Shown one piece after another: positions 2,374 to 27,542 of a DNA stretch of 34,786 nt. Both the position numbers and the translations under genes were made by a program. Each line of letters begins with the position of its first letter. The stretch's first letter is position 1. The stretch comes from a virus. Under the pieces are notes generated by a model. It was not told the origin of the DNA and did no database searches. It was given only the letters and a program-made list of their open reading frames with translations. The DNA lies in the IMG/VR virus record IMGVR_UViG_3300045136_000300, positions 1-34,786 of that record; one strand, 5' to 3'.

Positions 2374-2383
2374 CCAACGCACG
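2374..2383 (-). promoter_or_regulatory. Late-module motif, copy A (one mismatch)
   Basis: The minus strand reads CGTGCGTTGG, one base different from the consensus CGTGCGTTGC. It is in the 66-base gap between the tail gene ending at 2384 and the exported Cys-rich protein, 56 nt before the start at 2317, and points in the direction of late transcription. It would serve the lysis module. Confidence 0.5.
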
Positions 2384-3241
2384 TCAGACATTGCGGTCGC
2401 GCTGATCCCACCAACCTAATGTGTAGATTGCAAACTGGGTGTCTGTGCCGCCATACAACAGGCGCGTTCGGACCTGTGCCGAAGCATTGGTCCTCACCTG
2501 CACCGGGCCCATGGAGCGATTAGTCCCCGTGCTGGCATTCTGCACGGGCGACGTCTGTGTAAAAAAACTGTCAGGAGCGTCATCGGTGGCATCTAGATCG
2601 GTCACTAAAACCGAAGAGAAAACACTCGCGTTGTTGTTTATGATTCCTATAAGTAGGTCAGCTATTACTCTGATGCCGACCGGCACGCTCAGCGTCCGCG
2701 TGACTGCAGAGCTGCCTGGATTGGTCACATTCAAGTCATTGATGATCGTCTTCCAACGGAAATAGTCTGCGTGCTGGATGAACGGTCTGATTGATGTTGC
2801 GCGGACAATCGAACCGATCCGTCTGAAGGCGGTATAGCCGGATGGTAGAACTGCCGATGGATCGGTGGCATTATGGGCAAAAATATCATCGGGAACACCT
2901 CGTCCTCCAATGACAAAAATATGCCACGTCCCGTCCGCCAAGGCCGATGCCGATCGCATACCGCCATTTCCGGGCGCCCAGGAGACATCCAGTTGCTTGG
3001 TGATAGGTTGGGTGATCTCAAGATCGCGCTGATCGGCGGGGCGCGTCGAGCGTCCGTTGAAACCGATGTTGGAGGTTGATCGCGCGACGCCGGCGGTGAT
3101 GTCGATGTCGTTTACCGCATCAATCGCGTTGTTAGACAGGATCAGCCCGTCAATCCATCCGCGCGGCAAGAAGCCGTTGGCAATGCGCTCCTTCAATGCG
3201 CGCTCAGGGGCGGAATTGGAAAGTCGATACGCGCGGTTCAT
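2384..3241 (-). CDS. Virion protein of the fibre region, function unknown
   Basis: This is a 285-residue protein. Residues 28-45 (RGWIDGLILSNNAIDAVN) begin a stretch that I recognise in many phage tail-region proteins: a WIDGL-x-LSNN segment, DIDI-x-AG, then a beta-rich part with RRIGSIVR and DYF-x-W. Composition is Thr/Ser/Asn rich and beta-like, fitting a distal tail or fibre-associated domain. It starts two bases after the previous stop and follows two other fibre-region genes. Since the fibre protein at 3653-4273 is short, this product could carry receptor-binding surface; that is inference. No catalytic motif is visible. Confidence 0.78.
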   Translation of the reverse strand: MNRAYRLSNSAPERALKERIANGFLPRGWIDGLILSNNAIDAVNDIDITAGVARSTSNIGFNGRSTRPADQRDLEITQPITKQLDVSWAPGNGGMRSASALADGTWHIFVIGGRGVPDDIFAHNATDPSAVLPSGYTAFRRIGSIVRATSIRPFIQHADYFRWKTIINDLNVTNPGSSAVTRTLSVPVGIRVIADLLIGIINNNASVFSSVLVTDLDATDDAPDSFFTQTSPVQNASTGTNRSMGPVQVRTNASAQVRTRLLYGGTDTQFAIYTLGWWDQRDRNV

Positions 3242-3243
3242 GG

Positions 3244-3642
3244 TCAGAGATCGCCGCCGCTGACGTGCACGACGAAGGATTCGGCATTGTGGGTCGAGGC
3301 GCGCAGCGAGTAGAGGTTCGGCAGATAAAGCGCATTAGCCGGCTGCGAACAGTCGATCGAATACGAGAACACCGCGGTGGTCGTGCTCGGGGTGATGGCC
3401 TGCACCAGGATTTCCTTCCACAGGCGCGCGTTGGTGCCGTCGTGCACGAACAGTCGCACTACACCCGCCGTGGTGGTGCCGGTCGCCACAATGTCGATAT
3501 GATCGATGATCGATCCGTTCGCACCGGCGGTGAAGATGGTTACCAGTGTGCCGGTGCCGTCTCGGTTGGTGTTGGCCGTCGAGATCAGGTCGCGGGCATG
3601 GCGGACGGCCTGGATGAAGATGGGAGTCGATGTGACGGCCAT
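3244..3642 (-). CDS. Conserved small beta-rich tail-associated protein
   Basis: This is a 132-residue protein resembling a family frequent in tailed phages: N-terminal MAVTSTPIF, then TANTNRDGTGTL, FTAGANGS, VRLFVHDG and the ending SLRASTHNAESFVV. It has no signal peptide or membrane segment and is predicted to be all beta. Its function is not known to me; a structural role on the tail or fibre is likely from context. The start at 3642 is fixed by AGGAG six bases upstream. It sits between the fibre gene and another fibre-region gene, each a few bases away. Confidence 0.8.
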   Translation of the reverse strand: MAVTSTPIFIQAVRHARDLISTANTNRDGTGTLVTIFTAGANGSIIDHIDIVATGTTTAGVVRLFVHDGTNARLWKEILVQAITPSTTTAVFSYSIDCSQPANALYLPNLYSLRASTHNAESFVVHVSGGDL

Positions 3643-3652
3643 GTTCTGCTCC

Positions 3653-4273
3653 TCAGCGGCAGTTGTGCCAGTTGGAAAGCCCGACGTAGGCGGCCTGGTC
3701 GACGATGCCGAGGGTCGCGCGGGCATCGGCGGCGCTGGTATCGTCGAGCATGGTCGCCATGAAGGCGGAAACAGGGGTTCCGGTCACCGCCGTGGCGGCA
3801 AACGGGTTGCCGGACGCATCGAAAGCCAGGAACCTGTTTGCGCGATCGGCCGCCGCTGGCAAAAGCCCAATCACATCCGCATCGGAATCCGGTTGCAGCA
3901 TCGCGCGCGCGGCCGCCGTCACGATCTCCTGCAGCATCGCCACCAGCTTGGAAAACTGCAAGTTGATTGCCGGCACATTGAGCGGGCCGGAAGTGGGGAT
4001 ATGGGTTGTCAATTCGACGGCGAGATCGCGGCGGATGATAACGATCTCACCTCCAACCATGGGCACATTGAAGGTGACAGCCCCGCCGGTTTCCTCCAGC
4101 GCCCCGCTGGTGACATAATCCGTCGACAGGGCCTTGACGACCCCGTCAACAGTCACCACCAGATCGTTTTCGTCAAAGAAAACGAATGGGAATGTGAAGA
4201 CGGTTTGCCCCGGCGCCGCAATATACGACCGGCGCGGTGTTTCATCGGATACATCGAGCCATTGCACAGCCAT
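3653..4273 (-). CDS. Short tail fibre protein (T7 gp17 N-terminal-like anchor)
   Basis: This is a 206-residue protein. Residues 16-90 match the T7-type fibre anchor: YIAAPGQTVFTFPF-x2-F, DLVVTVDG, then T-x-DYVTSGA and a VTFNVP-x2-GG-x-IVIIRR strand pair. This part attaches fibres to the tail nozzle/adaptor. A short helical segment and linker follow, ending with ADARATLGI, a motif usually found just before a fibre's C-terminal domain. The protein stops about 15 residues later, so it lacks a receptor-binding domain of its own. Start ATG at 4273 has only a weak GGTGA site. Copy B of the late motif lies 32 nt upstream. Two further fibre-region genes follow and may supply the distal part. Confidence 0.85.
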   Translation of the reverse strand: MAVQWLDVSDETPRRSYIAAPGQTVFTFPFVFFDENDLVVTVDGVVKALSTDYVTSGALEETGGAVTFNVPMVGGEIVIIRRDLAVELTTHIPTSGPLNVPAINLQFSKLVAMLQEIVTAAARAMLQPDSDADVIGLLPAAADRANRFLAFDASGNPFAATAVTGTPVSAFMATMLDDTSAADARATLGIVDQAAYVGLSNWHNCR

Positions 4274-4305
4274 GGCATCACCATGGCTTACCGGTGCCGA
4301 TGATG

Positions 4306-4315
4306 GCAACGCACG
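4306..4315 (-). promoter_or_regulatory. Late-module motif, copy B
   Basis: An exact CGTGCGTTGC (minus strand) lies in the 45-base gap before the tail fibre gene, ending 32 nt upstream of its start codon. It is one of eight similarly placed copies. Confidence 0.6.
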
Positions 4316-4318
4316 GCG

Positions 4319-7300
4319 TCAGCGCGGCTGTGCCGGCTCCCTTTTCTCCGGGATCTGGAAATGGGCATTGGCCGCCTCCTCGACCTTGTTCAACACCCCA
4401 CGCAGCCAGAACAGGTTCTGCAGCGGAATCAGGCGGCGCAGGGCACTGGTGTCGGCGGCGCTCCATTCGCCCGCCGCCAGCGAACCGGTCAACCGCGGAA
4501 TGGTTTCGATCTTGCCCCAGGTCGGCCCCAGCAGCATGTCGGCGGCCGACCGCGAGACAAAGCGCGACAACGGCTTGTCGGCCCCGATCAGCCGGTAAAT
4601 ATCGACACCGCCGCGTGTGGCCTTGGACGCCAATGCATTCCCGTCCTCCAGCCAACCCAGGAGGCCCGCCCGCGATATGCCTTCCTTGATCCAATCTTGT
4701 GGGCGGTCCGAGGTCGGCTGGCCGCCGAAGAATGCATTGATCTTGTATGACAACATGCCAAGAGCCAATGACATGAACACCCCGGCCAATGCCGCCGCAT
4801 CCCGCCGCTGCAAATTGGCGACCAGGATGCGTTCGGTGGCCGCGGCGGTGAAGCTCTTGAACTGCCCCAACATGGCGCCAACGGGCCGCGACAGAAACAG
4901 TAGCTTTTCCTGGCCGGGCGTGACCACGGCAATGTCGACTTCGCGCGCCACGGCCCCGTTCAGAGCCTCAGCCGCGGCGCGGTCGGTCCAGTCCCCGGTG
5001 TTTGGCAGATAGACACCGGCGCGATGCGCCCCGCTGGTGGTGAATTGCTGCCAGATGCGGCCCGCCATTTGCTGGTCGATGCCCGCCTCGGCCAAGTTGG
5101 CGATCTGCTTCCGCGTCGCCTTGCCCTCGGCCACTGCCCGGCTGGCCCGGATGATCTCCGAAGTGGCCGCGTGTGCGGCGATGGTCTTGGCCGTGTCCGT
5201 GAACGGCGCCATCAAATTGATAATGAAGAATTTGTCGCTCGCCCCCTGCAGTGTCCGCTCAAGCCGTGACTGCGGCCGGTAGACATCGACGATGTCGTCC
5301 AGCGCATGCTGCCGGGCATTGATCGCGGTTTCCACACCGATCCCGAAGGCGCGAATCTGGGCCTTGAATTGCTTCCATTCCTCGTTCCTGGTGATCAGAC
5401 CGCGGAAGAATGGCACCCAGGCATCGCGGAATGCGGTGCCCAGATTGTATCTGAACACCACACCTGCAAGATCGGCCAAGGAGGTGATTGTCGCCATTCC
5501 CATGCTGAGGATATTATTGATCGCCAACGCCCCGCGGGCGACCCGCGCCATGTTCTGCGTGGCGGCGTCGGGCGACCAGCCGTAGACATGGCGGATGCGG
5601 TCGCGCACCGCCGCCAGGTCGGCGATCACCATGTCGCGCTCCTTGCCAAGACGGATGCGGTCCTTTTCCTCCTTGGTGGCGTCGATCAATTTGGCATAGG
5701 CTTCATTGACCTGCCGGAAGGCGGTGGTCATTTCCGCATCGCCGAATCGCTCGGAGAGGATGGTGTCGGGGATCACGGTGCGCAGGTAGGTGGCAACGAC
5801 CTCCTCGATGTCATCCTCGATCCATTCCGCCGCCCAGGCATTGCTGACATCCAGGCGCCGCTCCGCCAACGATCCGCGCACTGGCGGGGCCTCGTGGTAA
5901 CCAATCCGTGGGCCGCCCTGGTGCAAATCATAGGGTAACCTGCCGTCCGGCGAGCCGAGAATCCGGTCGACCGTTTCATTGGCGCGCGCGCGCAATTCAT
6001 CGATCGACAATTCGCGATCCGATTCCAGAATGCGTTTTACTGCACGGTCGACCGCCGCGTCGGCCTGCGTCAGTCGCGGTGCATCCGGCGCCCTGCCGGT
6101 CTTGGCAGCATATTCCTGCCGCGCCTTGAGCGCAGCCTTGGCTTCATTCGCGGAGGTGCCGGGCCAGGACGCAATTTCGGCCTCGATCTTGGCCCGCACC
6201 TCGTCGTGCATCGTTCGCGCGAACACGAGGTAATCCTCGATCAGCGCCTTGCGGTCGCGGACATTGGCCAACTGTTCGGTCAATTCTGCCAGGCGCCGTT
6301 CACTGCGCTTGGCGGCGCTGCCGGCTTCCTGGTGACGCGCCGCCTCGATCTTGAGCCGGATATTGCGACGCTCGAACGCAGCCAGCGCCCGGTCGAGCGG
6401 GGCCTGCAATTGCGGGTTGGTTTTGACCAGCTCTTCCATCAAATCGATGGATTCGGCGAGCGCGCGGGCATCAAGTGCGATCTCCGCCTGCCGCCGCTGC
6501 AATTCCGCAACACGACCTTTCGGCTCCTGATCTTCAAATCCGGCAACGCGCGGCAGATCATCCCGCCCACGCTCTTCGGCGCGGGCGGCAGTCAGTTCCT
6601 CGCGCCGCTCAGCCCGCGTCAGCCGCGCCTCAAGCTTGCTGATCTGATCCTGCCATGATTTCAGTTGGGCCGAATACCAGGACAGTCGCTGCTGGATGGC
6701 GCGCTCCACATCCTGGTCGGCCTTGTACTTTTCCACCAGCCGGTTCACGAACTCGGGACGCCGTGCACGGATCAGCGGTTTGTTCCAGAGATGCGGGAAA
6801 TAGCTTTCGTCATCCTTCTGCAACCGCTGGAATCCCTCGATGGCCGCTTCGGCGCGTTCGCCATAGCGGTCGAACACACGGCTGCGGATCAGCTTTGCCA
6901 CTCGCTCGACCTGCGGAATGGCGTGCCGATCGCCATTCAGCATAGCGCGCGACACCTCTCGCTTGAATTCGGCATAGCTCATCTTGTCCGTGGCGGCGCC
7001 GAAGAAATCCTGCACATAGCCGCGCAGCCGCGGCGCCAGAATGTCCGGATCGCCGAACCGGTATTCGGCAAAGGCGCGGTCCAGCTCATCGGCAATCGCG
7101 ACCCGCGTCCCCAGCAATTCCATCATCACCAGCCGGTTGACCGGCGGGCCGGAACTGACCGCCACCCCCTGTTCGGCCTCGCTGAACCGATAAGGCATTT
7201 CGGCGAGGTCGGCCATGATGCGCCGCGCCTCGACCGGCGCGGTCAACATGAAGCGCCGGGTCACCGATAGTTTGCGCAACGGCCCCAGATCGAGCGGCGT

Positions 7301-8041
7301 GCGCACCAGCTCCAATTGCCGCACGTCGGTCGGTGCGGCGCCAGCCGCGGCCGGCTGGCCGGTAGCGTGCAGGTCGATGTCGCGCCGCAGCGCATCGAGC
7401 GACTGTTCCAGCGCCTGGCGCTCAGCGCGGGTCAGTAGCGCCGCAGCACCGGCGCCAATGAGCCCGCTCAGGATCGCCCCGGATGCAACCGCCACCAACG
7501 ACTCGCCCGCGGTGCGGGTTTCCTGCGTCGCCTGCAGGATTGCCTCTTGCGCGCCGATCTGCGCGGCACCGGAAGCCGCGGCCGCAAGCGCCGAGCGACT
7601 GATCGAATAGCCAAGCCGCGCGCCGCGCACCAGCACGGCGCCAGGCAATGCCAACGTGGGATCGACCATTCCGGCCGCGATCTGCGCCACAAACCCGGGC
7701 GCACCCGCCGCAGCCAGTGTTTTGCGGTCCTCCTCCTCCTGCCGGATTTGCCAGGCAATGGCTTCGGTCTCGGCCGTCGAACGCGAGTCGACGAAACGAT
7801 GCAAATGATAATGCTCGTAATCGGTGCCGCGAATGACATCGAGCGGATTGTGCCCCGGTTCTGGCGGGAATTGGTCCTCGCGCAGTTTCCGGTACACATT
7901 GACCAACGGATTGTCCTGCCGGAATGCCGCTGCGATGGTCTCGGCCAACGAAGGCGCTTGGGGCGTGGGTGGCGGCGCCGTTCCCTCAGGCAACCGCGGC
8001 GGCGGCAATGCCTCCGGCGCCACATGGTCGAGAAACGGCAT
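4319..8041 (-). CDS. Large internal virion / DNA-ejection protein
   Basis: This is a 1240-residue protein in the position of T7 gp16-type or BPP-1-type internal core proteins. The N-terminus is Pro-rich (residues 10-32). Small-residue-rich hydrophobic segments lie at about residues 105-140 and 180-205, and further hydrophobic stretches occur near the C-terminus. A long charged region at about 440-700, very rich in Arg, Glu and Ala, should form coiled coil. I see no lysozyme motif. Proteins of this plan are stored in the capsid and form the channel that carries DNA across the envelope at infection. ATG at 8041 has GGAG five bases upstream; a GTG at 8047 overlaps the previous stop and is an alternative. 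Confidence 0.75.
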   Translation of the reverse strand: MPFLDHVAPEALPPPRLPEGTAPPPTPQAPSLAETIAAAFRQDNPLVNVYRKLREDQFPPEPGHNPLDVIRGTDYEHYHLHRFVDSRSTAETEAIAWQIRQEEEDRKTLAAAGAPGFVAQIAAGMVDPTLALPGAVLVRGARLGYSISRSALAAAASGAAQIGAQEAILQATQETRTAGESLVAVASGAILSGLIGAGAAALLTRAERQALEQSLDALRRDIDLHATGQPAAAGAAPTDVRQLELVRTPLDLGPLRKLSVTRRFMLTAPVEARRIMADLAEMPYRFSEAEQGVAVSSGPPVNRLVMMELLGTRVAIADELDRAFAEYRFGDPDILAPRLRGYVQDFFGAATDKMSYAEFKREVSRAMLNGDRHAIPQVERVAKLIRSRVFDRYGERAEAAIEGFQRLQKDDESYFPHLWNKPLIRARRPEFVNRLVEKYKADQDVERAIQQRLSWYSAQLKSWQDQISKLEARLTRAERREELTAARAEERGRDDLPRVAGFEDQEPKGRVAELQRRQAEIALDARALAESIDLMEELVKTNPQLQAPLDRALAAFERRNIRLKIEAARHQEAGSAAKRSERRLAELTEQLANVRDRKALIEDYLVFARTMHDEVRAKIEAEIASWPGTSANEAKAALKARQEYAAKTGRAPDAPRLTQADAAVDRAVKRILESDRELSIDELRARANETVDRILGSPDGRLPYDLHQGGPRIGYHEAPPVRGSLAERRLDVSNAWAAEWIEDDIEEVVATYLRTVIPDTILSERFGDAEMTTAFRQVNEAYAKLIDATKEEKDRIRLGKERDMVIADLAAVRDRIRHVYGWSPDAATQNMARVARGALAINNILSMGMATITSLADLAGVVFRYNLGTAFRDAWVPFFRGLITRNEEWKQFKAQIRAFGIGVETAINARQHALDDIVDVYRPQSRLERTLQGASDKFFIINLMAPFTDTAKTIAAHAATSEIIRASRAVAEGKATRKQIANLAEAGIDQQMAGRIWQQFTTSGAHRAGVYLPNTGDWTDRAAAEALNGAVAREVDIAVVTPGQEKLLFLSRPVGAMLGQFKSFTAAATERILVANLQRRDAAALAGVFMSLALGMLSYKINAFFGGQPTSDRPQDWIKEGISRAGLLGWLEDGNALASKATRGGVDIYRLIGADKPLSRFVSRSAADMLLGPTWGKIETIPRLTGSLAAGEWSAADTSALRRLIPLQNLFWLRGVLNKVEEAANAHFQIPEKREPAQPR

Positions 8042-8043
8042 CG

Positions 8044-11196: not shown

Positions 11197-11202
11197 GGTC
11201 GA

Positions 11203-13867: not shown

Positions 13868-13874
13868 GGTGGCC

Positions 13875-14489
13875 TCACCGGAAGCGCAGATCGACCGGCA
13901 CTGAGCCGCGCGCCCGCAATGTCGGTGAATGCACCGGGTTCCGCGGCGGCTGCGAGACCGTGTCACGATGCCGCGCCTCGGCAAACTGCTTGTCGGCCGC
14001 CGCATCACGCTCGCGCGCATCGTCGTAGCGTTCGCCAATGCCGCGCAGGAACATGGCCTCGCAACGGTAGATCATGGCCAGCCGGAACCAGGGTGGCCAT
14101 TCCGATTCCGGCGGCCGGTAGACATAATGCAGTATGACGTGGTCGGTCTCATCCGCATCACAGAGCACGGTATTGCCATGCACCGCATAGTCGATGGGCT
14201 TGCCGGCCACTTTGACCACGCTGATGTCGATCAGATCGGATGGCAGCATATAGGCGGCAAGCCATGGTTCAGGCGGGTCCCCATGCAAAGCAGGGTCGAG
14301 CCGGTTGAGCTCCTGTATCTTCATGGCCCGCTTCCACGGATGCAGCGACAATTCGCCCCGGACCAGGTTTTCGTAGTTCTCGGCGGCAACGGCGGCGCCG
14401 ATGGATGTGTCTTCGGGCGGCAACCCGGAAATGGGCTCGTTGCCAGTGCGTGTCAGCGCGGCATTGATGATCGACAGATCGAGACTCAT
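13875..14489 (-). CDS. Tail adaptor protein (tail tubular protein A, gp11-like)
   Basis: This is a 204-residue protein with the N-terminal pattern of podovirus adaptors: INAALTRTGNEPISGL, ENYENLVRGELSLHPWKRA (residues 8-56), then a PWLAAYMLPSDLI-type strand and a helical C-terminal part. The family forms a ring joining the portal to the nozzle. A seven-base gap separates it from the nozzle gene. It has no clear ribosome site at the ATG (14489). Copy C of the late motif ends 31 nt upstream, so this gene appears to lead the tail module. The Arg-rich tail (residues 170-204) is less conserved in my memory of the family. Confidence 0.8.
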   Translation of the reverse strand: MSLDLSIINAALTRTGNEPISGLPPEDTSIGAAVAAENYENLVRGELSLHPWKRAMKIQELNRLDPALHGDPPEPWLAAYMLPSDLIDISVVKVAGKPIDYAVHGNTVLCDADETDHVILHYVYRPPESEWPPWFRLAMIYRCEAMFLRGIGERYDDARERDAAADKQFAEARHRDTVSQPPRNPVHSPTLRARGSVPVDLRFR

Positions 14490-14520
14490 GCGCGGATTAG
14501 GCCCGCGGGGGCGGCATCAT

Positions 14521-14530
14521 GCAACGCACG
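14521..14530 (-). promoter_or_regulatory. Late-module motif, copy C
   Basis: An exact CGTGCGTTGC (minus strand) lies in the 43-base gap between the Pro/Ala-rich protein and the tail adaptor gene, ending 31 nt before the adaptor start. Confidence 0.6.
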
Positions 14531-14532
14531 GA

Positions 14533-15333: not shown

Positions 15334-15336
15334 GTC

Positions 15337-15651: not shown

Positions 15652-15663
15652 GGCTGGCCTCCG

Positions 15664-16788: not shown

Positions 16789-16801
16789 GCCGGCACCGCC
16801 C

Positions 16802-17753: not shown

Positions 17754-17762
17754 GAACGTCTC

Positions 17763-18634: not shown

Positions 18635-18652
18635 GCCATCATCAGACGACCA

Positions 18653-19195: not shown

Positions 19196-19198
19196 GGA

Positions 19199-19540: not shown

Positions 19541-19552
19541 GATCGGCCTCAA

Positions 19553-20014
19553 TTAGACGCCGGTGGTGGCGCCGGCAGCGGTCGACACATAGGCATCGAC
19601 ATTCATGACGATGCCGGCCGAGAACGTGCCGGTTGAGAGGTTGCCGTTGTTCGGCGTATACAGCAACCGGATGTAGCGCTCATAGGGCACCGCATCGGAT
19701 GCAATCGGCATGGGGAAGAAGAACTTGGTGCCCGCCGGCGTCAGCGCCGGCAAGGTGCCGAGCGTCGCCACTGTGGTTGGCGAGGAAAAGCCGGAGTTGT
19801 CATCTGTCTGCAGCGTGATGGTGAGCGTGGAATCGTTGCCGGCATCGCTCATCCCCACCTCGCAGAACACAAAGATGAACAGGTCCTGCCCATAACCGAG
19901 ATTGCGCCCGGTGTTGCCGATGGCCAGCGGCCCGGTGTCGATGACATTGGTGGACGCCGCCGCCGCGGTGATGGCCTGCGAGTCCGAGAACAGGTTTTGA
20001 GCGTCGGTGATCAT
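19553..20014 (-). CDS. Capsid cement protein, Bbp16-like
   Basis: This is a 153-residue protein resembling the Bbp16 capsid-stabilising family of BPP-1: MITDAQNLFSDSQAIT at the N-terminus, then IDTGPLAIGNTGRNLGYGQ, LTITLQTDDNSGFSSP and IRLLYTPNNGN. Cement proteins bind the outside of the expanded capsid and lock it. The gene directly follows the major capsid gene, as in BPP-1-like phages. The start at 20014 has an AAGGGACAG site upstream; the open frame continues to 20497 only as a shadow of the capsid gene. Confidence 0.82.
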   Translation of the reverse strand: MITDAQNLFSDSQAITAAAASTNVIDTGPLAIGNTGRNLGYGQDLFIFVFCEVGMSDAGNDSTLTITLQTDDNSGFSSPTTVATLGTLPALTPAGTKFFFPMPIASDAVPYERYIRLLYTPNNGNLSTGTFSAGIVMNVDAYVSTAAGATTGV

Positions 20015-20037
20015 GGCGTCTGTCCCTTGCTCTGATG

Positions 20038-21024: not shown

Positions 21025-21026
21025 GG

Positions 21027-21794
21027 TCAGCTAGCCTTCTTCTCTGCGAGTGCCGGCCAGATGCGTTCGGCCAGCGACTTCTGTTGCGGCGTTGTGGTCT
21101 GCTGCAGCGGCGCCGGCTGGTTCCCCGGCACCGAACCGTTCACCATCTGCATGAGCTTTTCCAGCAAGCTCACCACTGGCGCCGGATGCATCGCCTTCAG
21201 GTCGGCGAGCAACGGATCGACTTCCTCGGCAGAAAGCGTCCCCCTCGTTTTCAACCCCGTCAGCCATTGTGACACCGCCTCGATGCGCGCCTGCGCATTG
21301 TCGCCGAGGGCCTTCAATTGTGCGGCGCGAAATTGCACGGCCGCATTGTAGCTGTCGATCTTCTGCTGCGCGTCGATGGCAAAGAGCTCATTGACCGCTT
21401 CCTGGCTAAGGCCATGCTTCTTGGCAAAGGCGCGCACCAGAGGAATGCGCGGGTCCTTTTCGTCGAGGCGAAAATCCTCGCGCCGGAACGGCTCAGGCAA
21501 CTTGAAGTCAGCCGGCAACTCGAACTTGTAATCCTCCGGCTTCTGCGGCAATGCCGCGCGCCGCTCGTTCTCGCGCCGGTGGAACTCGGCCAATTCTGTG
21601 TAGTGCTTGCCGAAATCGTCGAGCTTGATCGCCCCCGCCTCGGCATTCCAGAAGGCATCGGGCAGGAACCCGGGCTTCTGTGCCGAGGCGGGCGGCCCCG
21701 CCGGCGCGGCCTGCGAGGGAGGTGCGGCCGTGGCCGCAGCCGGCGCCGTCGATGTGGAAGCAGGATTTGGTTCGTTTGCCATCGCGGTCGTCAC
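21027..21794 (-). CDS. Scaffolding protein
   Basis: This is a 255-residue protein. The first 45 residues are Ala/Pro-rich and likely disordered, then comes FLPDAFW, then KPEDYKFELP-x-DFKLPEPFRREDF (about residues 84-107), a pattern typical of podovirus scaffold proteins, then PLVRAFAKKHGLSQEAVNEL, and a helical, Gln/Pro-rich C-terminus. Scaffolds direct capsid assembly and then leave. Its stop is two bases before the capsid gene. The start is uncertain: GTG at 21794 overlaps the stop of a 28-codon frame (GTGA), while ATG at 21782 is four codons further in. Two copies of the late motif lie just upstream. Confidence 0.82.
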   Translation of the reverse strand: MTTAMANEPNPASTSTAPAAATAAPPSQAAPAGPPASAQKPGFLPDAFWNAEAGAIKLDDFGKHYTELAEFHRRENERRAALPQKPEDYKFELPADFKLPEPFRREDFRLDEKDPRIPLVRAFAKKHGLSQEAVNELFAIDAQQKIDSYNAAVQFRAAQLKALGDNAQARIEAVSQWLTGLKTRGTLSAEEVDPLLADLKAMHPAPVVSLLEKLMQMVNGSVPGNQPAPLQQTTTPQQKSLAERIWPALAEKKAS

Positions 21795-21877
21795 TTATCG
21801 CAGCCCACCACCGGGCAGCAACGCACGCCGGCAATATGGCGCAGTTCCGGACATGGTTGGCAACGCACGTTCGGCAT
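21791..21877 (-). CDS. Possible 28-residue Cys-rich micro-protein
   Basis: An ATG at 21877 overlaps the Bbp19-like gene's stop (TGATG). It opens a 28-codon frame whose TGA overlaps the scaffold gene's GTG (GTGA). The product, beginning MPNVRCQPCPELRH, has five Cys (residues 6, 9, 20, 21 and 26), enough for a zinc knuckle. Both copies of the late motif here fall inside it and each encodes VRC. The two coupling junctions favour a real gene; the motif copies, which have a better explanation as DNA elements, argue that the repeated VRC is incidental. Confidence 0.4.
   Translation of the reverse strand: MPNVRCQPCPELRHIAGVRCCPVVGCDK
21818..21827 (-). promoter_or_regulatory. Late-module motif, copy D
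   Basis: An exact CGTGCGTTGC (minus strand) ends 35 nt before the scaffold ATG (23 nt before the alternative GTG). It forms a tandem pair with copy E, 42 bases further upstream. Confidence 0.58.
21860..21869 (-). promoter_or_regulatory. Late-module motif, copy E
   Basis: An exact CGTGCGTTGC (minus strand) lies just after the Bbp19-like gene and upstream of scaffold and capsid, in tandem with copy D. The doubled element stands ahead of the gene whose downstream neighbour, the major capsid protein, is needed in the largest amount. Confidence 0.58.
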
Positions 21878-22152
21878 CAGGACGGGGCGCGCTCGGTCAA
21901 TAGCCGCCGCCCCTGCTCGATCATGTTTTCCAGCATGGACACGATCCGGCGGCCACCCTCCAGATCGCGCAATTCGGCATCGGTCGCCGCCGGCGGCAGC
22001 ACGCGCTCCTTGGTCTTGGCGCGCAAAAAGGCCAGCAATATTTCGCCGTCGGGGGTCAGGAACAGGCGCGCACAGGCCTCCTCGACGCGCCGGTCGGGCG
22101 GCGACTCCAGCCGCCGCGGCCCCAGATGTTCCCATGCCGCGGGCTGCTTCAT
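21877..22152 (-). CDS. Bbp19-like small protein
   Basis: This is a 91-residue helical protein. The pattern ARLFLTPDGEILLAFLR (about residues 28-44) followed by ATDAELRDLEGGRRIVSMLENMIEQG matches the Bbp19 family of BPP-1-like podoviruses, found between portal and scaffold genes. Its function is unknown, probably head assembly. The ATG overlaps the portal stop (ATGA) so it is translationally coupled to the portal. Confidence 0.78.
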   Translation of the reverse strand: MKQPAAWEHLGPRRLESPPDRRVEEACARLFLTPDGEILLAFLRAKTKERVLPPAATDAELRDLEGGRRIVSMLENMIEQGRRLLTERAPS

Positions 22153-23750
22153 GGCACCGCTTCCCCGCCGACAATGCCGACCGGCGGCGGCGCGATCTCG
22201 CCCGGGCGCCCGGCCACGAAATTCCTCAGGATCGGCATCAGCTGCTCGATGGCATCGGCAATCTTGGCCTCATCGCGCAACAGGTTCTTGTCCACTCCCA
22301 ACAGGCGCGCCAGGCGGTCGGCATAACGCACCACGTCGATGACGATCATCGTGATCTGCGGCCCGAACCGCGCTGCCAGCATTTCCGAGAAACGGTCGAG
22401 GCGGATCACCTCCTCCTGTTCCTGCGCCCGCAGCAATGGCGACACCGGGCCGACGGTGACTTCGCTGCCGTTCAATTCGATCCGCGGCAGTACGCCGCGG
22501 CGCGCGAGAAGATAGGCAAACCGCCGGGCAATGCCGTATTGCAATTCCTCGACCAGATTGGTGGCGGGGCTGCCCATGCGGCGCGCCCGCTCTGCCGCCT
22601 CGTCGGCCCACTGGGTTGCGGTCGGCGGCGTCTTGCCGAGCTGCTCGGGGCGGTCCTGGTAATGGGCGCGCCGGATCGCCGACCGCACCTCATCGATCTC
22701 GAACACCTGGATGTCGAACCTGGCGCGCGATTCGATCACCACCGGCTCACGCGAGCCGGGTGCGCGCGCGATCCATTCGCCGGGATTGATGCCCTGGCTG
22801 ACATTGGTGACATGGTCGTCTTCGTAGCTGACGTTCGGGTCGACATGCTTGTCGTAGTTCTTCAGACTCAAATAGCGGATGTGGTTGATGGTCTTGACCG
22901 CCGGGATCGAGCGGTAGGTGGGACCAACACCCCAGGCGGTGGTGGAATCGCGTGACCAGCGGGCCACCACAAATGGGCAACACCCCTCGCCGGTCCAGGT
23001 CTTCTCGTAGATCAGCCTGCCATTTGCGCGCACTACGTAATGCCAGGTCTCGGTGCCGCGCTCGCTCCAATCGCGCCAACAGCCGTCGGCAATCTCCACT
23101 TCGGTCGTCGCTTCCTCGGGTGCCGGGCCGATCGCGCGCAGATCGGCCTCCGGCCACACCGAAGGAATTTCCTCATACAGATAATTCATGCGCGGCCGGA
23201 AGATGCCGTCGATGTAACCGAATGGACCGCGCGTCAGTCGCACATCGGTGGCCGCGATCGCCTCGCAATGGATCGGCTTCGCCGCATCGATGTCATTGAT
23301 CAACAACACCATCGTGCCGGGGCCGAGGTCGTAATAACCTTCCTGCAGCGCCTGATACAGGTTCGAGCGCCGCATCTCCTCGAACATTACCTGCTGATAA
23401 CGCGCCAATTGCTCCGCCAGCTGCCGGTGCTCGGCCCGGTCAAGGGTGCGGCGCGGTGCCCACTCGAGCCAGTCGTTCTTGCGCGGCGTGAAGGTGTTGA
23501 GCATGTCGGCGGAGAAGTCCTCCAGCACCGTCATCAGCGTCTCGTCGAACACCTCGTCGAGCTGATCCGCCGGCTGCAATGTGCCGATCCGGTGCCGCCA
23601 TGGCATGCCGTACTTGTAGCAATCGGCGAGCCGCGCCCGATGGCGGGAAAAATCCGTCTCCGCCCGCGCCAACCGACGGTTGAATGCCTTGAGTCGCTCC
23701 GGTTCCGGCTCTGCCGCCGCACGGGGAGGCAACCGCGTGATGGAGGCCAT
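22149..23750 (-). CDS. Portal protein (podovirus head-tail connector)
   Basis: This is a 533-residue protein, the usual size for T7/BPP-1-type connectors. Family features: an N-terminal helical region with TDFSRHRARLADCYKYGMPWR, DEVFDETLMTVLEDFSADML, FTPRKNDWLEW, VLLINDIDA, then GVGPTYRSIPAVKTINHIRY and a C-terminal helical crown region with AADEAAERARRMGSP-like text. It forms the dodecameric ring through which DNA is packaged and exits. The gene follows terminase by two small genes; its ATG overlaps the preceding stop as TGATG and has a GGGGAG site. No truncation is seen. Confidence 0.9.
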   Translation of the reverse strand: MASITRLPPRAAAEPEPERLKAFNRRLARAETDFSRHRARLADCYKYGMPWRHRIGTLQPADQLDEVFDETLMTVLEDFSADMLNTFTPRKNDWLEWAPRRTLDRAEHRQLAEQLARYQQVMFEEMRRSNLYQALQEGYYDLGPGTMVLLINDIDAAKPIHCEAIAATDVRLTRGPFGYIDGIFRPRMNYLYEEIPSVWPEADLRAIGPAPEEATTEVEIADGCWRDWSERGTETWHYVVRANGRLIYEKTWTGEGCCPFVVARWSRDSTTAWGVGPTYRSIPAVKTINHIRYLSLKNYDKHVDPNVSYEDDHVTNVSQGINPGEWIARAPGSREPVVIESRARFDIQVFEIDEVRSAIRRAHYQDRPEQLGKTPPTATQWADEAAERARRMGSPATNLVEELQYGIARRFAYLLARRGVLPRIELNGSEVTVGPVSPLLRAQEQEEVIRLDRFSEMLAARFGPQITMIVIDVVRYADRLARLLGVDKNLLRDEAKIADAIEQLMPILRNFVAGRPGEIAPPPVGIVGGEAVP

Positions 23751-23983
23751 CAGCCGCTCCCCAATACGGATTTGAGGAATCCGCTACTGTCGAACGCCCC
23801 AACCAGGGAACGGACGCCGCGGCTCGGGCCGCGCAGCAGCGTCTCAAGCCGCAATTGCTCCTGGATTGCCCTGATCCGATCCTCCTCCGCCCGCCGCGCC
23901 TCCTCCTGCCGGAGCCGCACGATTTCCGGGTCCTCAGCCGGAATTGGCGTGGGCGGCATCGATGGTTTCTTGAACATCGACAT
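23750..23983 (-). CDS. Small charged protein between terminase and portal
   Basis: This is a 77-residue protein: a Pro-rich start (FKKPSMPPTPIPAEDPE), a central strongly charged helix (REEARRAEEDRIRAIQ-like, about 24-50), then a Gly/Ser-rich tail ending SGFLKSVLGSG. Short proteins of this plan, Pro-rich start and a GFLxxxLG ending, recur at this locus in related podoviruses; the function is unknown. The start at 23983 has GAAGG seven bases upstream and lies inside the previous gene's end (50-base overlap). Confidence 0.75.
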   Translation of the reverse strand: MSMFKKPSMPPTPIPAEDPEIVRLRQEEARRAEEDRIRAIQEQLRLETLLRGPSRGVRSLVGAFDSSGFLKSVLGSG

Positions 23984-24368
23984 CTGGCACCTTCAATTGC
24001 TCCGCTCCCTGCGCCACAAGATCGCGATACAATGCCCCCGGCAGCAACGCACGGCTGCGGATGCCGCACAGGGCCTTGATCGCCCCCACGCAGGAAAAGC
24101 AGGGCGGGAACAGCCGCCGCGCCTGTTGCGGCACGATCCGCAGGATGTGCGGGCGGCAGGCGGCAACCCATTCCCCATAGATGGCGGCACATTCCGGCCC
24201 CTCCGGCAAGGCCCGGATCATCAGGGAACGCGCCGACGGATTGAAGAAAATCCACAATTTGTGCTCGGCATCATAACCGGCGGCGGCCACATGGCCGAAA
24301 GCCCCCCGCAGGATGTGCGACCACGGCGCCGCGGCCGGGCCGAAGAACAGATGCCAGGCCCTCACCAT
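23934..24368 (-). CDS. Conserved terminase-adjacent protein, unknown
   Basis: This is a 144-residue protein. It begins VRAWHLFFGPAAAPWSHILR, then GHVAAAGYDAEHKLWIFFNPS; the RAWHLFFG and YDAExxxWxFxNP patterns recur in small phage proteins beside terminase genes. A central Cys pair occurs in FPPCFSCVGAIKALCG. The function is not known. The ATG at 24368 and a GTG one codon later both precede the terminase stop overlap (GTGA). The gene overlaps the next by 50 bases and contains copy F of the late motif within its coding sequence. Confidence 0.75.
   Translation of the reverse strand: MVRAWHLFFGPAAAPWSHILRGAFGHVAAAGYDAEHKLWIFFNPSARSLMIRALPEGPECAAIYGEWVAACRPHILRIVPQQARRLFPPCFSCVGAIKALCGIRSRALLPGALYRDLVAQGAEQLKVPDVDVQETIDAAHANSG
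24044..24053 (-). promoter_or_regulatory. Late-module motif, copy F (inside a coding region)
   Basis: An exact CGTGCGTTGC (minus strand) lies within the terminase-adjacent gene, 60 nt upstream of the start at 23983 and therefore ahead of the portal segment. Here it is read as Arg-Ala-Leu, a different frame from copies D and E, so a shared protein motif cannot explain it. Confidence 0.52.
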
Positions 24369-25882
24369 CCCCTGATCCCGGCGCTGCGCTGGAACGGATT
24401 GTAGGGCCGCCGCGTCGGCACTACCGGCTTGCGCTCGCTGCTGGCCACCAGGACCGATCGCCCCTCCCCGCCGCCCACCAACAGATATTCACCCGCCTCG
24501 CAGATGTGGCTGTATTGGTTCTTCTCCGCCTCCTCGGAATATACCTCCCCCGAAACACGGCGCCGCCGCAAATGGTAGCCGCCGGCCATCCCGGTGATGT
24601 AGGTCGTGCATCTCGGATCGACCAGCAACGCCACCGGCCCGCCCGAGGCCGACCGCCGCGTCAGCACGGCATTCACCGCCTCGCGCCGCAACGATGCCCG
24701 GTTCTGGGCATCCCAGATCGGCATCACCGGCATGCCATGAGCCCGGAACACATCGAACGGCGTGGTGTCGGTCGCCTGTCCGCGCACCGCCCCGGACGGG
24801 TCGCCCCAGAACTGGAACACGAACCCCGGATAATGTTCCTTCAGATAGGTCCGCAATGCCGGCGCAAATTCCACCGCCGAGACATTGCGGCCGATGAATT
24901 CGCGCTGGATGTACCAGTCGCCGCGCAGGCACTGCCCGATCAGCGCCGCCGGGTTTCTCCCAAAATCCAACCCCACCTGCACCTTCACCCCGGCGATCGG
25001 TTCCAACGGCTTCTTGGCCACATGGGCATCGCGCCGGAACGCCGGATACACCGGCCGCCCGTCGGTCACCACCGACGACCGGTTCATGATGTTGGCGTCG
25101 ATCCAGGCCCGCGTCTGCCCGCCGATCTTCTCCATGTAGAAGTTCGGCGGCAGATGCTTCAGATTCTCCGCCTTCGGATTCGGCTCGTACCCGATCAGCT
25201 CGCCCTTGTCGTCGAACTTCTCGATCAGCCCCGGCGGCTGCATGAAGAACCGCCAATTCGGCGGCCGCACCAGCGCCCTCCGCTGCTCCTCGCTCATCCA
25301 CTCCGGCGGCGGCACATCGCCGCGCATGATCGGGATCCAATGATCAGCCGGCGGCGCATTGGTGTCGATGATCATGCCACCATACTTGCAGCCACCATCC
25401 TTCACCGCCGGATATCGCGGCGGACACACCCGCTCCGCCAGCGCCATCACAAACCCAAGCTCGAAATACTGCCCCTCGTTGATCCAGATCATCGAGGTGT
25501 CGAGCGACTTGGCATACGAATCGGCGTCCCGGATGTCCTCCAGCGCCATGAACGTCACATCGAGCTCCAGCGGCCCCACCCGGATCTCGTGCTTGAACGG
25601 CTTCGACCAATAGAACCGACCGAACTCCTCGGGCGGAAACCAGTCCAGCCACGTCTTGACCGTCGTCTCCTCCAATTTCGGAAACGTGTCACGGAAGATA
25701 TGCGCGCGAAACCGCTGCCGACCGTCCCGCTGCCGCGGCTGCGCCACCGCATGCTGGTAGATGTTCATGCAGCAACACGACGAGGTGCCAGATCCCACCG
25801 GACCCTGTATCACCCGCACCCGCGAGGTCGTGTCCGCCATGAACGCATCAAGCACATCACCGTCAGGCACAAACTGACGCAT
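24362..25882 (-). CDS. Terminase large subunit
   Basis: This is a 506-residue DNA-packaging motor. The ATPase domain shows a Walker A-like GPVGSGTSS at residues 27-35 and a Walker B-like MIWINEG at 131-137. The RNase H-type nuclease domain shows GLDFGRNP (Asp306), FWGDPSG (Asp361) and LLVDPRC (Asp422), followed by the usual EKNQYSHICEAGEYLL ending. It cuts and pumps phage DNA through the portal. One oddity: the invariant Walker A lysine position is Thr33 (GSGT, codon ACC). A good ribosome site (GGTGAGG) precedes the ATG. Neighbours are small genes and the small terminase upstream. Confidence 0.93.
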   Translation of the reverse strand: MRQFVPDGDVLDAFMADTTSRVRVIQGPVGSGTSSCCCMNIYQHAVAQPRQRDGRQRFRAHIFRDTFPKLEETTVKTWLDWFPPEEFGRFYWSKPFKHEIRVGPLELDVTFMALEDIRDADSYAKSLDTSMIWINEGQYFELGFVMALAERVCPPRYPAVKDGGCKYGGMIIDTNAPPADHWIPIMRGDVPPPEWMSEEQRRALVRPPNWRFFMQPPGLIEKFDDKGELIGYEPNPKAENLKHLPPNFYMEKIGGQTRAWIDANIMNRSSVVTDGRPVYPAFRRDAHVAKKPLEPIAGVKVQVGLDFGRNPAALIGQCLRGDWYIQREFIGRNVSAVEFAPALRTYLKEHYPGFVFQFWGDPSGAVRGQATDTTPFDVFRAHGMPVMPIWDAQNRASLRREAVNAVLTRRSASGGPVALLVDPRCTTYITGMAGGYHLRRRRVSGEVYSEEAEKNQYSHICEAGEYLLVGGGEGRSVLVASSERKPVVPTRRPYNPFQRSAGIRGW

Positions 25883-25888
25883 GACACC

Positions 25889-26176
25889 TCACCGCGCCGG
25901 CGGTTCAGTCACCTGCCGCGCCGCCGCACGCATCATCGCAAGAATGTCGTGCTGCAGATAAGATGCCGCCGCCGCCAGATGATGGTCGACCATCTCCCCT
26001 TCCGGTCGCTCAAGCCCCGTCACCACGTCCCCCGCACCATCCACATAGGCAAACACCATCGCCCTGATCCGCCCAGCCCGCGCATGCTCAAGCATCTGCG
26101 TCAAGAGCTCAATCACCCCAGCCACCGGAGCGCCAGGCAAACGCCGCACCACCTGCAATTCCCTCACCTCACTCAT
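25889..26176 (-). CDS. Small helical-beta protein, paralogue 1
   Basis: This is a 95-residue protein of unknown function. It shares a layout with the product of 26307-26594: VIELLTQMLEHARAGRIRAMVFAYVDGAGDVV here against VARVLEAVLREARAGRVLSVGVVAVMGTGQVS there, then a helix (HLAAAASYLQHDI here, FGAGLLMDLVMEQV there). They look like an old tandem duplication split by a 43-codon gene. The pattern leucine helix, ARAGR turn and beta hairpin is common in small phage proteins near terminase. The start at 26176 is set by GGGGGAGG and overlaps the preceding stop (ATGA). Confidence 0.78.
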   Translation of the reverse strand: MSEVRELQVVRRLPGAPVAGVIELLTQMLEHARAGRIRAMVFAYVDGAGDVVTGLERPEGEMVDHHLAAAASYLQHDILAMMRAAARQVTEPPAR

Positions 26177-26304
26177 CGCCGCCTCCCCCGCCGCGGCGCA
26201 CGCCTGAAACCGCGCGTCGCATAATACGCCCGCACCTGCCGCCCACTGTACGTCCGCCCACTCGGCGACCGGTACCGATCCCGACCAACCTTCCGAAATG
26301 GCAT
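26173..26304 (-). CDS. Tiny basic conserved protein (43 residues)
   Basis: This is a 43-residue, strongly basic protein: MPFRKVGRDRYRSPSGRTY, SGRQVRAYYATRGF, then an Arg-rich end. The opening resembles a short phage family of the type MP-[FY]-KKVGKN-x-Y-x-SPSGRKF-x-KKQV-x-YYA that is usually missed in annotation. GGAGGTGAGG directly before the ATG is a very strong ribosome site, and its stop overlaps the next start (ATGA). It probably binds nucleic acid; the function is unknown. Confidence 0.78.
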   Translation of the reverse strand: MPFRKVGRDRYRSPSGRTYSGRQVRAYYATRGFRRAPRRGRRR

Positions 26305-26306
26305 CC

Positions 26307-26594
26307 TCACCTCCCCACCAAAATCGACGACCGCCGCCCACGATGCTGCGCCACCTGCTCCATAACCAAATCCATCAGCAGCCCAGCCCCAAAATACAAA
26401 TCAGACGGCGAATGCTGCCGCGTCGCAGATACCGACACCTGACCAGTACCCATCACCGCCACAACCCCAACCGACAACACACGCCCAGCCCGCGCCTCCC
26501 TCAACACCGCCTCCAACACCCGCGCCACCTCCGGATTGCCAACCGTCGCACCCTCACCCAAAATCTCCTTCACAGCCCCGTTCACATCGCCCAT
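26307..26594 (-). CDS. Small helical-beta protein, paralogue 2
   Basis: This is a 95-residue protein similar in layout to that at 25889-26176 (leucine-rich helix, ARAGR turn, beta hairpin, second helix). The N-terminus MGDVNGAVKEILGEGATVGNPE differs. No family name is known to me. The start at 26594 has GGAGG seven bases upstream and overlaps the previous frame's stop (TGATG). It ends just before the ribosome site of the 43-codon gene. Confidence 0.76.
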   Translation of the reverse strand: MGDVNGAVKEILGEGATVGNPEVARVLEAVLREARAGRVLSVGVVAVMGTGQVSVSATRQHSPSDLYFGAGLLMDLVMEQVAQHRGRRSSILVGR

Positions 26595-26818
26595 CAAGCG
26601 CCTCCATCGCTCCAGTTAACCCACGGAAATTCCACCACCAACGGTTTGCGCCAGAAATCAATCGGGGAACATCCGCACCGGCGCGAGCGCGGGTTTTGCC
26701 CCCCCGGGGGCGCGCCGGCACCGCCCGCCGGATCGCGCGGGCTTCGCGCGACCATCACGCGCGTGAGCGTCGCTGGGCTGGCGCGGGTGGACTGCGGCCG
26801 GAGCGCGTTGCCGATCAC
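26594..26818 (-). CDS. Possible small protein after small terminase
   Basis: A 74-codon frame starts with GTG overlapping the small terminase stop (GTGA) and ends overlapping the next ATG (TGATG). These junctions and the lack of another gene in the gap favour translation. The N-terminal two thirds is low-complexity Arg/Pro/Gly and could be frame noise in GC-rich DNA; the ending DFWRKPLVVEFPWVNWSDGG looks more protein-like. No family was recognised. A shorter start within the frame is possible. Confidence 0.4.
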   Translation of the reverse strand: MIGNALRPQSTRASPATLTRVMVARSPRDPAGGAGAPPGGQNPRSRRCGCSPIDFWRKPLVVEFPWVNWSDGGA

Positions 26819-27360
26819 GGCTTCTCAACCGGATCGTGCTCGATCAGTGGCTTAGCGGCGGAGCCCGCCTGATCGCCGATCACGTCGGCATCGCCGCTGC
26901 CCTCGCGCTGAGCCCGCCGGGCGCCGAGGACGATCGTGTAACCGACCTGCACGTCGTTGCGGATGTTGATGCTGTGGCCGGTCTGCGGCGCTTGGATGCC
27001 GTTCAGCGCCAGGATCGTGCGCGCTGCGTCTAGGCTCACGTGCTCGCTCGTCGCATGCAGGAGCGCGACCATGCGCGCAGCGGCCGGCATTGACGCGCTG
27101 CCGATCCTGCGGCGGACTTCGCGCGCGATGAACACCTGTACGTGATCGCGTGATAGCTGTCGGGAGAGATGCTCGCGGGAGATGCCGACGCGTTCGGCGG
27201 CGGCGGTTTGCGTCGAGCAGGCGCCGGAGAGCAGCAGCTCGATGGCGCGGCGGACTTGCTTGGAGATGCGCGGTGCCTGTGCTGGCGCCTGGGGCGCCTG
27301 GGCTGTTGAGTCTGCGGGTGGCAGTTGTGCGAGGACTCGTTTGATGCCGTGCTTGGGCAT
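26815..27360 (-). CDS. Small terminase-like DNA-binding protein
   Basis: This is a 181-residue protein. Residues about 31-75 form a helix-turn-helix: ISKQVRRAIELLLSG, then TQTAAAERVGISREHLSRQL. This is followed by an Ala-rich helical region (MPAAARMVALLHATSEHVSL) and a beta/charged tail. Small terminase subunits recognise the packaging site through such an N-terminal HTH and oligomerise by the following helices. Its place as the first gene of the packaging block supports the call; a transcription regulator is the alternative. The frame stays open to 28098 but that extension is a shadow of non-coding and plus-strand DNA. Copy G of the late motif ends 31 nt upstream of the ATG. Confidence 0.72.
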   Translation of the reverse strand: MPKHGIKRVLAQLPPADSTAQAPQAPAQAPRISKQVRRAIELLLSGACSTQTAAAERVGISREHLSRQLSRDHVQVFIAREVRRRIGSASMPAAARMVALLHATSEHVSLDAARTILALNGIQAPQTGHSINIRNDVQVGYTIVLGARRAQREGSGDADVIGDQAGSAAKPLIEHDPVEKP

Positions 27361-27391
27361 GCGGGCAGGATCGTGTGGGGTGGCGTGAGGC

Positions 27392-27401
27392 GCAACGCAC
27401 G
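27392..27401 (-). promoter_or_regulatory. Late-module motif, copy G
   Basis: An exact CGTGCGTTGC (minus strand) ends 31 nt before the small terminase start, the same spacing as copies B and C. Confidence 0.6.
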
Positions 27402-27460
27402 TGAGGCGGAGTGCGAGGCGGGCTCGGCAGCGGGCGGAGCCGAGCGGCTGCCGGGCGGTG

Positions 27461-27497
27461 TGATGTGTGGGAGGGACGTGGGTGATGTGTGGGAGGG
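27461..27497. repeat. 15-bp direct repeat upstream of small terminase
   Basis: TGATGTGTGGGAGGG occurs at 27461-27475 and again at 27483-27497, 22 bases apart, about two helical turns. The surrounding 80 bases are G-rich on the plus strand, so the leader transcript toward terminase is C-rich and G-poor. It could be a binding site for the small terminase (pac/cos-type) or a rho-loading leader. Confidence 0.55.
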
Positions 27498-27532
27498 GTG
27501 TGGGGAGGGATCGGCGATTTTTGCGGCGCGCG

Positions 27533-27542
27533 GCAACGCACG
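27533..27542 (-). promoter_or_regulatory. Late-module motif, copy H
   Basis: An exact CGTGCGTTGC (minus strand) lies 141 bases upstream of copy G and 172 nt before the small terminase start. The terminase block, like scaffold/capsid, thus has two copies. Confidence 0.55.

What the first reader, a model, noticed from the sequence alone, without database searches (positions are those of the whole stretch)
2374..27542. An eight-copy 10-mer marks the late modules: probable phage promoter or regulator site
Seen: CGTGCGTTGC (minus strand) occurs exactly at 4306-4315, 14521-14530, 21818-21827, 21860-21869, 24044-24053, 27392-27401 and 27533-27542, and with one mismatch at 2374-2383. All point in the direction of late transcription; by eye no copy was found in the opposite orientation or in the right-hand replication block. 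They precede terminase (two), portal, scaffold/capsid (two), tail adaptor, fibre and lysis genes. Four end 31-35 nt before the start codon. Seven of eight lie outside recognised genes although non-coding DNA is rare here (copies D and E fall within a doubtful 28-codon frame). In the coding copies the reading frames differ, so no protein motif explains it. By chance one expects well under one copy. Inference: recognition site of a phage-specific RNA polymerase, sigma factor or late activator, or the -35-like part of late promoters.
Basis: partly seen in the sequence, partly recalled or inferred. Interest (0 to 1): 0.88.

Follow-up and report, generated by a model that had tools for sequence, protein, structure and literature searches.

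The report
Phage late promoters with shared box
The repeated 10-letter sequence is the upstream half of a family of virus "late" promoters that probably replace the host polymerase's usual -35 signal with a box read by a phage-made activator, start messenger RNA right at the gene's AUG, and recur across many uncultured phages, giving a directly testable control system for that group.

Summary
There are seven exact copies of CGTGCGTTGC and one 1-mismatch copy, all minus strand, none in the replication block, against about 0.07-0.18 expected.

The sequence is the upstream half of a bipartite late promoter. In 29 related phage genomes or contigs the core GTGCGTTG occurs 132 times. Of these, 95 carry a -10-like element (A and T five bases apart, usual form CAnnTT) exactly 21 bp downstream, where 279 anagram controls average 0.7. 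An ATG sits 40-43 nt from the box in 80. Promoter-proximal ATGs lack Shine-Dalgarno sequences (1/104 versus 92/246 of other genes), so late mRNAs are probably leaderless. Where a fibre module is inverted, the motif is inverted with it. Inside one gene the box is read in all three frames, so selection is on DNA.

Only bases next to the box (-2, -1, +8, +9) are uniform within each genome; the -10 is not. I infer that a phage factor reads the box and host sigma reads the -10. The best candidate factor is the Xre-like HTH protein at 29590-30093. No T7-type RNAP or sigma region-2 gene was found. The system extends to distant phages, including the named record Mwe-JY08. The promoter reading is near certain; the activator's identity is inferred.

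The parts
4307..4314 (-). Box GTGCGTTG upstream of fibre gene 3653-4273; -10-like CATGGT at 4280-4285 (spacer 21), ATG at 4273
14522..14529 (-). Box upstream of the T7-gp11-like gene 13875-14489; weak -10 (TAATCC), ATG 40 nt from the box start
21819..21826 (-). Box upstream of scaffold gene 21027-21794; -10 weak (TAAGTG, A only); ATG 44 nt from the box start
21861..21868 (-). Second, distal box upstream of the scaffold gene; -10-like CATATT at spacer 22
24045..24052 (-). Box inside the pre-portal gene 23934-24368, upstream of portal 22149-23750; -10-like GATCTT at spacer 21; read in all three frames among relatives
27393..27400 (-). Proximal box of the small-terminase gene 26815-27360; -10-like GATCCT at spacer 20, ATG 40 nt from the box start
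27534..27541 (-). Distal box of the small-terminase gene, 141 bp upstream; a tandem pair 110-175 bp apart recurs in relatives
2375..2382 (-). Box (CGTGCGTTGG) upstream of the lysis region; partial -10 (CATCTG)
29590..30093 (-). Candidate late activator: 167 aa, predicted N-terminal Xre/lambda-repressor-like HTH and basic C-terminal tail; last minus-strand gene before the late region
26815..27360 (-). Small-terminase-like gene, first gene behind the tandem boxes
22149..23750 (-). Portal (T7-type head-tail connector, phrog_332), used to find relatives

Best explanation
Each copy is the -35-position element of a late promoter. The architecture is GTGCGTTG - N21 (range 19-22) - CAnnTT - 6-7 nt - ATG. 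Host RNA polymerase with its housekeeping sigma reads the -10-like element through the A at -11 and the T at -7. A phage-encoded DNA-binding activator reads a box of about 12 bp at roughly -43 to -32, in place of or together with sigma region 4, and recruits polymerase to the late modules once it has been made from the early operon. The most likely activator is the Xre-like HTH protein at 29590-30093, in the position lambda gives to gene Q. Transcripts are predicted to begin at or within about 2 nt of the AUG, so late mRNAs are leaderless. SHOWN by sequence: two elements at fixed spacing; strand and junction conservation across diverged phages; reversal with inverted genes; DNA-level selection inside a coding region; absence of Shine-Dalgarno sequences; genome-specific flanks confined to the box. 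INFERRED: that they are promoters, the start site, sigma reading the -10, the activator's identity, and late timing.
For:: 95 of 132 GTGCGTTG sites have A at +30 and T at +34; 279 anagram controls average 0.68, maximum 6. ATG lies at +40 to +43 in 80 sites against an anagram mean of 1.1; over 228 distinct sites the ATG tends to shift with the spacer, the A-to-ATG distance staying mostly 10-13 nt; in G001, G002 and G005 the fibre module is inverted and carries an inverted box with ATG at 41-42; in the pre-portal gene the box is read in all three frames (RAL, PCV, GVRC). SD-like sequence at 1/104 promoter-proximal ATGs versus 92/246 others, Fisher P = 6e-16; bases are uniform within genomes only at -2, -1, +8 and +9 (P 0.0005-0.0025), not in the -10. 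Activator: a family member in 14 of 17 portal-relative records, the 3 without being fragments; the only conserved small non-structural family with a predicted DNA-binding fold; homologs in distant motif-bearing phages G037 (5e-28), G020 (5e-13), Mwe-JY08 (4e-7), G040 (6e-6). No PF04542 sigma region-2 match; no ORF of RNAP size outside structural genes in the called genes of G005.
Against: No transcription or binding data exist. In the window itself only four of eight copies have both the A and the T of the -10 (27392 at spacer 20, 24044 and 4306 at 21, 21860 at 22). Xre proteins usually bind palindromes as dimers and this box is not palindromic. The activator family is detected only weakly in G019, G017 and G023, and the AF2 model rests on 14 sequences (mean pLDDT 77.5, pTM 0.46). 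Marine-like motif-bearing contigs lack a detected homolog but are fragments. L025 has a related portal and no motif. The link between factor and box is co-occurrence only.
Confidence: 0.77

Rival explanations
1. The promoter is as described, but the box is read by a different factor, either a host regulator or alternative sigma factor or another phage protein (for example the GcrA-like protein at 33742-34155), not by the Xre-like protein.
For: GcrA is a known sigma-70 cofactor in Alphaproteobacteria and a PF07750 protein is present in G000, G001 and G002. The TTG inside the box sits where a -35 TTG would, 18 bp from the -10.
Against: GcrA is missing from G003, G004, G005, G008 and G009, which have the motif. 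The box flanks vary by phage genome while the -10 does not, which points to a phage factor. The Xre-like family tracks the motif into distant phages.
Confidence: 0.25
2. A phage-encoded alternative sigma factor or RNA polymerase recognises both elements by itself.
For: The elements lie near -35 and -10, as for a sigma factor, and the spacing is nearly fixed.
Against: No PF04542 match in eight records, with good controls. PF08281 matches only one relative above cut-off. The PF00940 search is uninformative, since nothing rang in the controls, but G005 has no unassigned ORF of RNAP size. A single-subunit polymerase uses one compact promoter. The -10 is not genome-specific although the box is.
Confidence: 0.08
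3. The box is an operator or antitermination site rather than part of the promoter, for example a Q-like loading site.
For: The candidate gene lies where lambda has Q, and GTA regulators use antitermination (PMC11150451).
Against: Each late module has its own copy with its own -10-like element and ATG at fixed distance, and the absence of SD fits initiation at each site. Lambda Q needs one promoter, not eight.
Confidence: 0.06
4. A chance repeat, codon-driven motif or mobile repeat.
For: Short repeats are common in GC-rich DNA (one search lists many).
Against: Counts far above anagram and Markov controls, conservation in 27 of 28 diverged loci, all three reading frames, fixed second element.
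Confidence: 0.01

Closest known systems
T4 middle promoters (MotA box + AsiA, sigma appropriation)
   Same: A phage activator's box stands in place of the -35 element while host sigma still reads the -10 (PMC7403470).
   Different: Different box sequence and position, no MotA or AsiA homolog identified, late instead of middle genes, leaderless starts predicted.
Lambda cII / Xre-type activators at -35
   Same: A lambda-repressor-like HTH protein acting at the -35 region (from general knowledge); the structural neighbours of the candidate are Xre proteins.
   Different: cII binds a direct repeat TTGC-N6-TTGC flanking the -35; here there is one non-repeated box, used at about eight late promoters per phage.
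GafA / GafYZ activators of alphaproteobacterial gene transfer agents
   Same: Phage-derived activators in Alphaproteobacteria that bind around the -10/-35 region and act through host RNA polymerase (PMC9638019, PMC11150451).
   Different: GafA has DUF6456, not found above cut-off in 13 of these phages; the GTA promoter -35 AATCAT and ZBE palindrome differ; the mapped start codon of gtaT lies at +251, not leaderless.
Lambda Q and other late antiterminators
   Same: Position of the candidate gene at the end of the early operon.
   Different: Multiple dispersed promoters each with a -10, not one promoter plus read-through.
T7-like phages (capsid, portal, internal virion proteins)
   Same: Same morphogenesis genes.
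   Different: No T7-type RNA polymerase ORF; replication genes include a DnaD-like/DUF1376 protein with iterons.

Membership tests
Bacterial sigma-70-type promoter with activator box | A -10-like element with A(-11) and T(-7) at fixed distance from the upstream element | tested here: met
   95/132 at spacer 21, 11 at 20, 3 at 22; anagram mean 0.68
Bacterial sigma-70-type promoter with activator box | Transcription starts about 7 nt downstream of the -10 | not testable with these tools
   Inferred from ATG position and SD absence
T4 MotA/AsiA sigma appropriation | MotA and AsiA homologs | tested here: inconclusive
   Pfam scans of window regulatory candidates show no such family, but not every gene was scanned
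T4 MotA/AsiA sigma appropriation | Activator box replacing the -35 with host sigma reading the -10 | tested here: inconclusive
   Architecture fits; binding not tested
GafA (DUF6456) | PF20057 domain | tested here: not met
   No match over cut-off in 13 records; one weak hit in G002; Caulobacter control positive
GcrA-dependent promoters | GcrA encoded wherever the motif occurs | tested here: not met
   PF07750 over cut-off in 3 of 17 records; host GcrA not excluded
T7-type single-subunit RNA polymerase system | RNA polymerase gene | tested here: inconclusive
   PF00940 zero hits but no positive control; no ORF of suitable size outside structural genes in G005
Xre / lambda-repressor-like HTH | Characteristic multi-helix HTH fold | tested here: met
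   AF2 helices 9-25, 29-36, 42-47, 59-69 at high pLDDT; Z about 9 with C.Esp1396I over 70-72 residues; no Pfam HTH match
Phage-encoded sigma factor | Sigma70 region 2 domain | tested here: not met
   PF04542 zero in 8 records, controls positive; highly diverged factors not excluded

The most novel reading that the evidence does not exclude
A previously undescribed class of activator-dependent late promoter in T7-like podoviruses that lack their own RNA polymerase. One Xre-like activator replaces -35 recognition at all late modules, its flanking specificity drifts per phage lineage so that related phages may have mutually orthogonal late switches, and nearly all late operons are leaderless.
Probability: 0.5. 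Interest if true: 0.72.

Novelty: new variant of a known kind. Interest (0 to 1): 0.62.

Why it matters
It gives a sequence-level definition of late promoters, and a named candidate activator, for a large and almost entirely uncultured group of phages whose gene control was unknown. It explains how T7-like structural modules can be expressed without a T7-like polymerase. It also offers dozens of natural activator-box pairs, in which the changing flank bases can be tested directly as specificity determinants, and a regulon in which leaderless late mRNA appears to be the rule. In practice the 43-bp signature can be used to find, orient and delimit such phages and to correct start codons.

Tried and rejected
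Rfam and tRNA scans of the window: nothing. Near-identity DNA search in phage records: only a 149-bp match in Mwe-JY08. Full-text search for GTGCGTTG: 420 papers, the 10 listed being unrelated primers or sequences. EcfG-type promoter (GGAAC-N16/17-CGTT) considered by eye for the copy at 21818: GGAAC is present but 20 bp away; rejected. Sigma-54 and RpoH consensus considered from memory; no fit. DUF6456/GafA: not met. Host identification by genome contigs: only two MAG contigs of unlikely phyla, probably binning artefacts; searching Alphaproteobacteria from a plasmid locus was not accepted. Xanthobacter plasmid hit to the Mwe-JY08 regulator: not followed beyond its annotation. The second enriched motif CGAAGCAAAC proved to be an iteron array, not a promoter element. 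L025's CTCGGAATTTT repeats are a local tandem array, not a variant promoter. PHROG hits of the regulator (phrog_2384) touch mainly the C-terminal KARARW-like motif and say nothing on function. One script exceeded its time limit because the anagram set was smaller than asked for, and was rerun.
Full report
CHECK OF THE OBSERVATION. All coordinates are right: seven exact CGTGCGTTGC on the minus strand and one CGTGCGTTGG at 2374, no exact copy on the plus strand. The expected number per strand is 0.06-0.18, and the 10-mer is the most over-represented on its strand (log10 P -11.8). The window is a 34.8-kb IMG/VR virus contig with T7-type morphogenesis genes: portal, capsid PF20911, capsid-assembly protein, tail proteins, internal virion proteins, T7-type fibre N-terminus.

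CONSERVATION. The portal brought 28 related loci at 49-66% amino-acid identity, one of them a near-identical contig. GTGCGTTG is present in 27 of 28 and strongly strand-biased; in many it is among the most over-represented 8-mers. Later scans added more distant groups.

THE SECOND ELEMENT. Aligning 90 sites on the 8-mer alone showed information at +29 to +34 (CAnnTT; A at +30 in 80 of 90, T at +34 in 72) and ATG at about +41. Over 29 genomes and contigs (533 kb, both strands) there are 132 sites: 95 with A30/T34, 11 with the spacer one shorter, 3 one longer. The 279 anagrams of the 8-mer average 20.6 sites, 0.68 with A30/T34 and 1.1 with ATG at 40-43 (motif: 80). A and T five bases apart are the two most conserved positions of a bacterial -10 hexamer, so the start site should lie at about +41, that is at the ATG. 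Where the spacer is 19 or 20 the ATG tends to move with it.

DNA, NOT PROTEIN, IS CONSERVED. One site lies inside the gene before the portal (window 23934-24368). Across its homologs the 8-mer occurs in all three reading frames, giving RAL/CAL, PCV or GVRC at about the same place. A protein motif cannot do that.

ORIENTATION FOLLOWS THE GENES. In G001, G002 and G005 the fibre module is inverted, and an inverted box precedes it with ATG at 41-42. In two phages the back-to-back boxes form a palindrome (L002 16358, L017 11392).

LEADERLESS LATE mRNA. Of 104 promoter-proximal ATGs with an ORF of at least 50 codons, one has an SD-like sequence; of 246 other ATG genes, 92 do; random DNA has 7.6% (Fisher P = 6e-16).

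WHO READS THE BOX. Within-genome sameness of bases, tested against shuffles, is significant only at -1, +8, +9 (P 0.0005) and -2 (P 0.0025), not at -6 to -3, +10 to +12 or around the -10. For example all eight core G005 sites have T at -1, all four in L020 have G, four of five in G009 have A. Non-homologous sites of one phage therefore share a lineage-specific extended box, as expected if a phage factor reads it and a common host sigma reads the -10. The shuffle ignores relatedness among genomes, but the contrast between box and -10 does not depend on that. No sigma region-2 gene was found. The T7 RNAP search had no positive control, but in G005, which has a 127-bp terminal repeat, all called genes above 560 codons are structural.

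CANDIDATE ACTIVATOR. The 167-aa protein at 29590-30093 is the last gene of the minus-strand early block before the late region. Its family is in 14 of 17 records; the three without are fragments. It has no match in phage records by tblastn and no Pfam match above cut-off. AF2 on 14 sequences gives an N-terminal helical domain (pLDDT about 90) that matches Xre proteins, Z about 9 over 70-72 residues; Foldseek alone had no match below E 0.05. Z near 9 for a small helical domain is moderate, but nearly all top rows are Xre-type. Remote homologs occur in distant motif-bearing phages: G037 5e-28, G020 5e-13, G040 6e-6, G019 1e-4, G017 0.003; Mwe-JY08 3.6e-7. G023 shows one only with an enlarged profile (3.5e-5). 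In Mwe-JY08 (portal about 31% identical) GTGCGTTG is the top strand-biased 8-mer, 7 against 1, mostly with spacer 20, and the homolog is the last plus-strand gene of the early block. Other conserved non-structural families (326, 314 and 426 aa) are larger and were not identified here; they are not excluded.

MECHANISM AND ITS LIMITS. The best reading is a late promoter in which an activator box occupies about -43 to -32. The TTG of the box falls where a -35 TTG would, so sigma region 4 may share the site. Whether the activator displaces region 4 (as MotA/AsiA do, PMC7403470) or contacts it is not decided by these data. In the window itself the -10 elements are weaker than in relatives: both A and T are found in four of eight copies (27392, 24044, 4306, 21860).

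KNOWN SYSTEMS. GafA and GafYZ are the nearest studied alphaproteobacterial analogues (PMC9638019, PMC11150451), but DUF6456 is absent and the GTA promoter differs. AR9 work notes that phage transcripts are often leaderless (PMC5312081), so leaderless messages as such are not new. I found no description of this box or regulon in the searches made; most subscription papers are not in that library.

Noticed in passing
window 33293-33403 (-): Array of GCGAAGCAAAC iterons at about 11-bp spacing inside the DUF1376/DnaD-like replication gene 32793-33725: probable replication origin within the initiator gene, as in lambda O.
   Followed up: partly
window 33742-34155 (-): GcrA-like protein (PF07750, E 1e-18), a hint that the host is an alphaproteobacterium; also in G001 and G002 only.
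   Followed up: partly
L002 16358 and L017 11392: Back-to-back boxes forming a near-perfect palindrome (e.g. CCACAACGCACGTGCGTTGTGG) drive divergent late modules.
   Followed up: partly
L025 3790-4036: The one portal relative without the motif carries six copies of GCTCGGAATTTT in a tandem array; its late promoter, if any, is unknown.
   Followed up: partly
L163 (PP395640, Microcystis phage Mwe-JY08): Recorded host is a cyanobacterium, yet the phage carries DUF2312, DUF1376 and this late-promoter system, which suggest an alphaproteobacterial host.
   Followed up: no
L056 and L057: Contigs of MAGs named Thermomicrobiales and Actinomycetota carry these phages; probably binning artefacts or free phage.
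   Followed up: no
L064, L070, L074, L086, L095, L104, L108 and similar: A separate group of contigs at 44-49% GC uses TTGTGCGTTGA boxes with one conserved promoter (CATATT, ATG at 41) but other copies lacking the -10; the -10 rule may differ there.
   Followed up: partly
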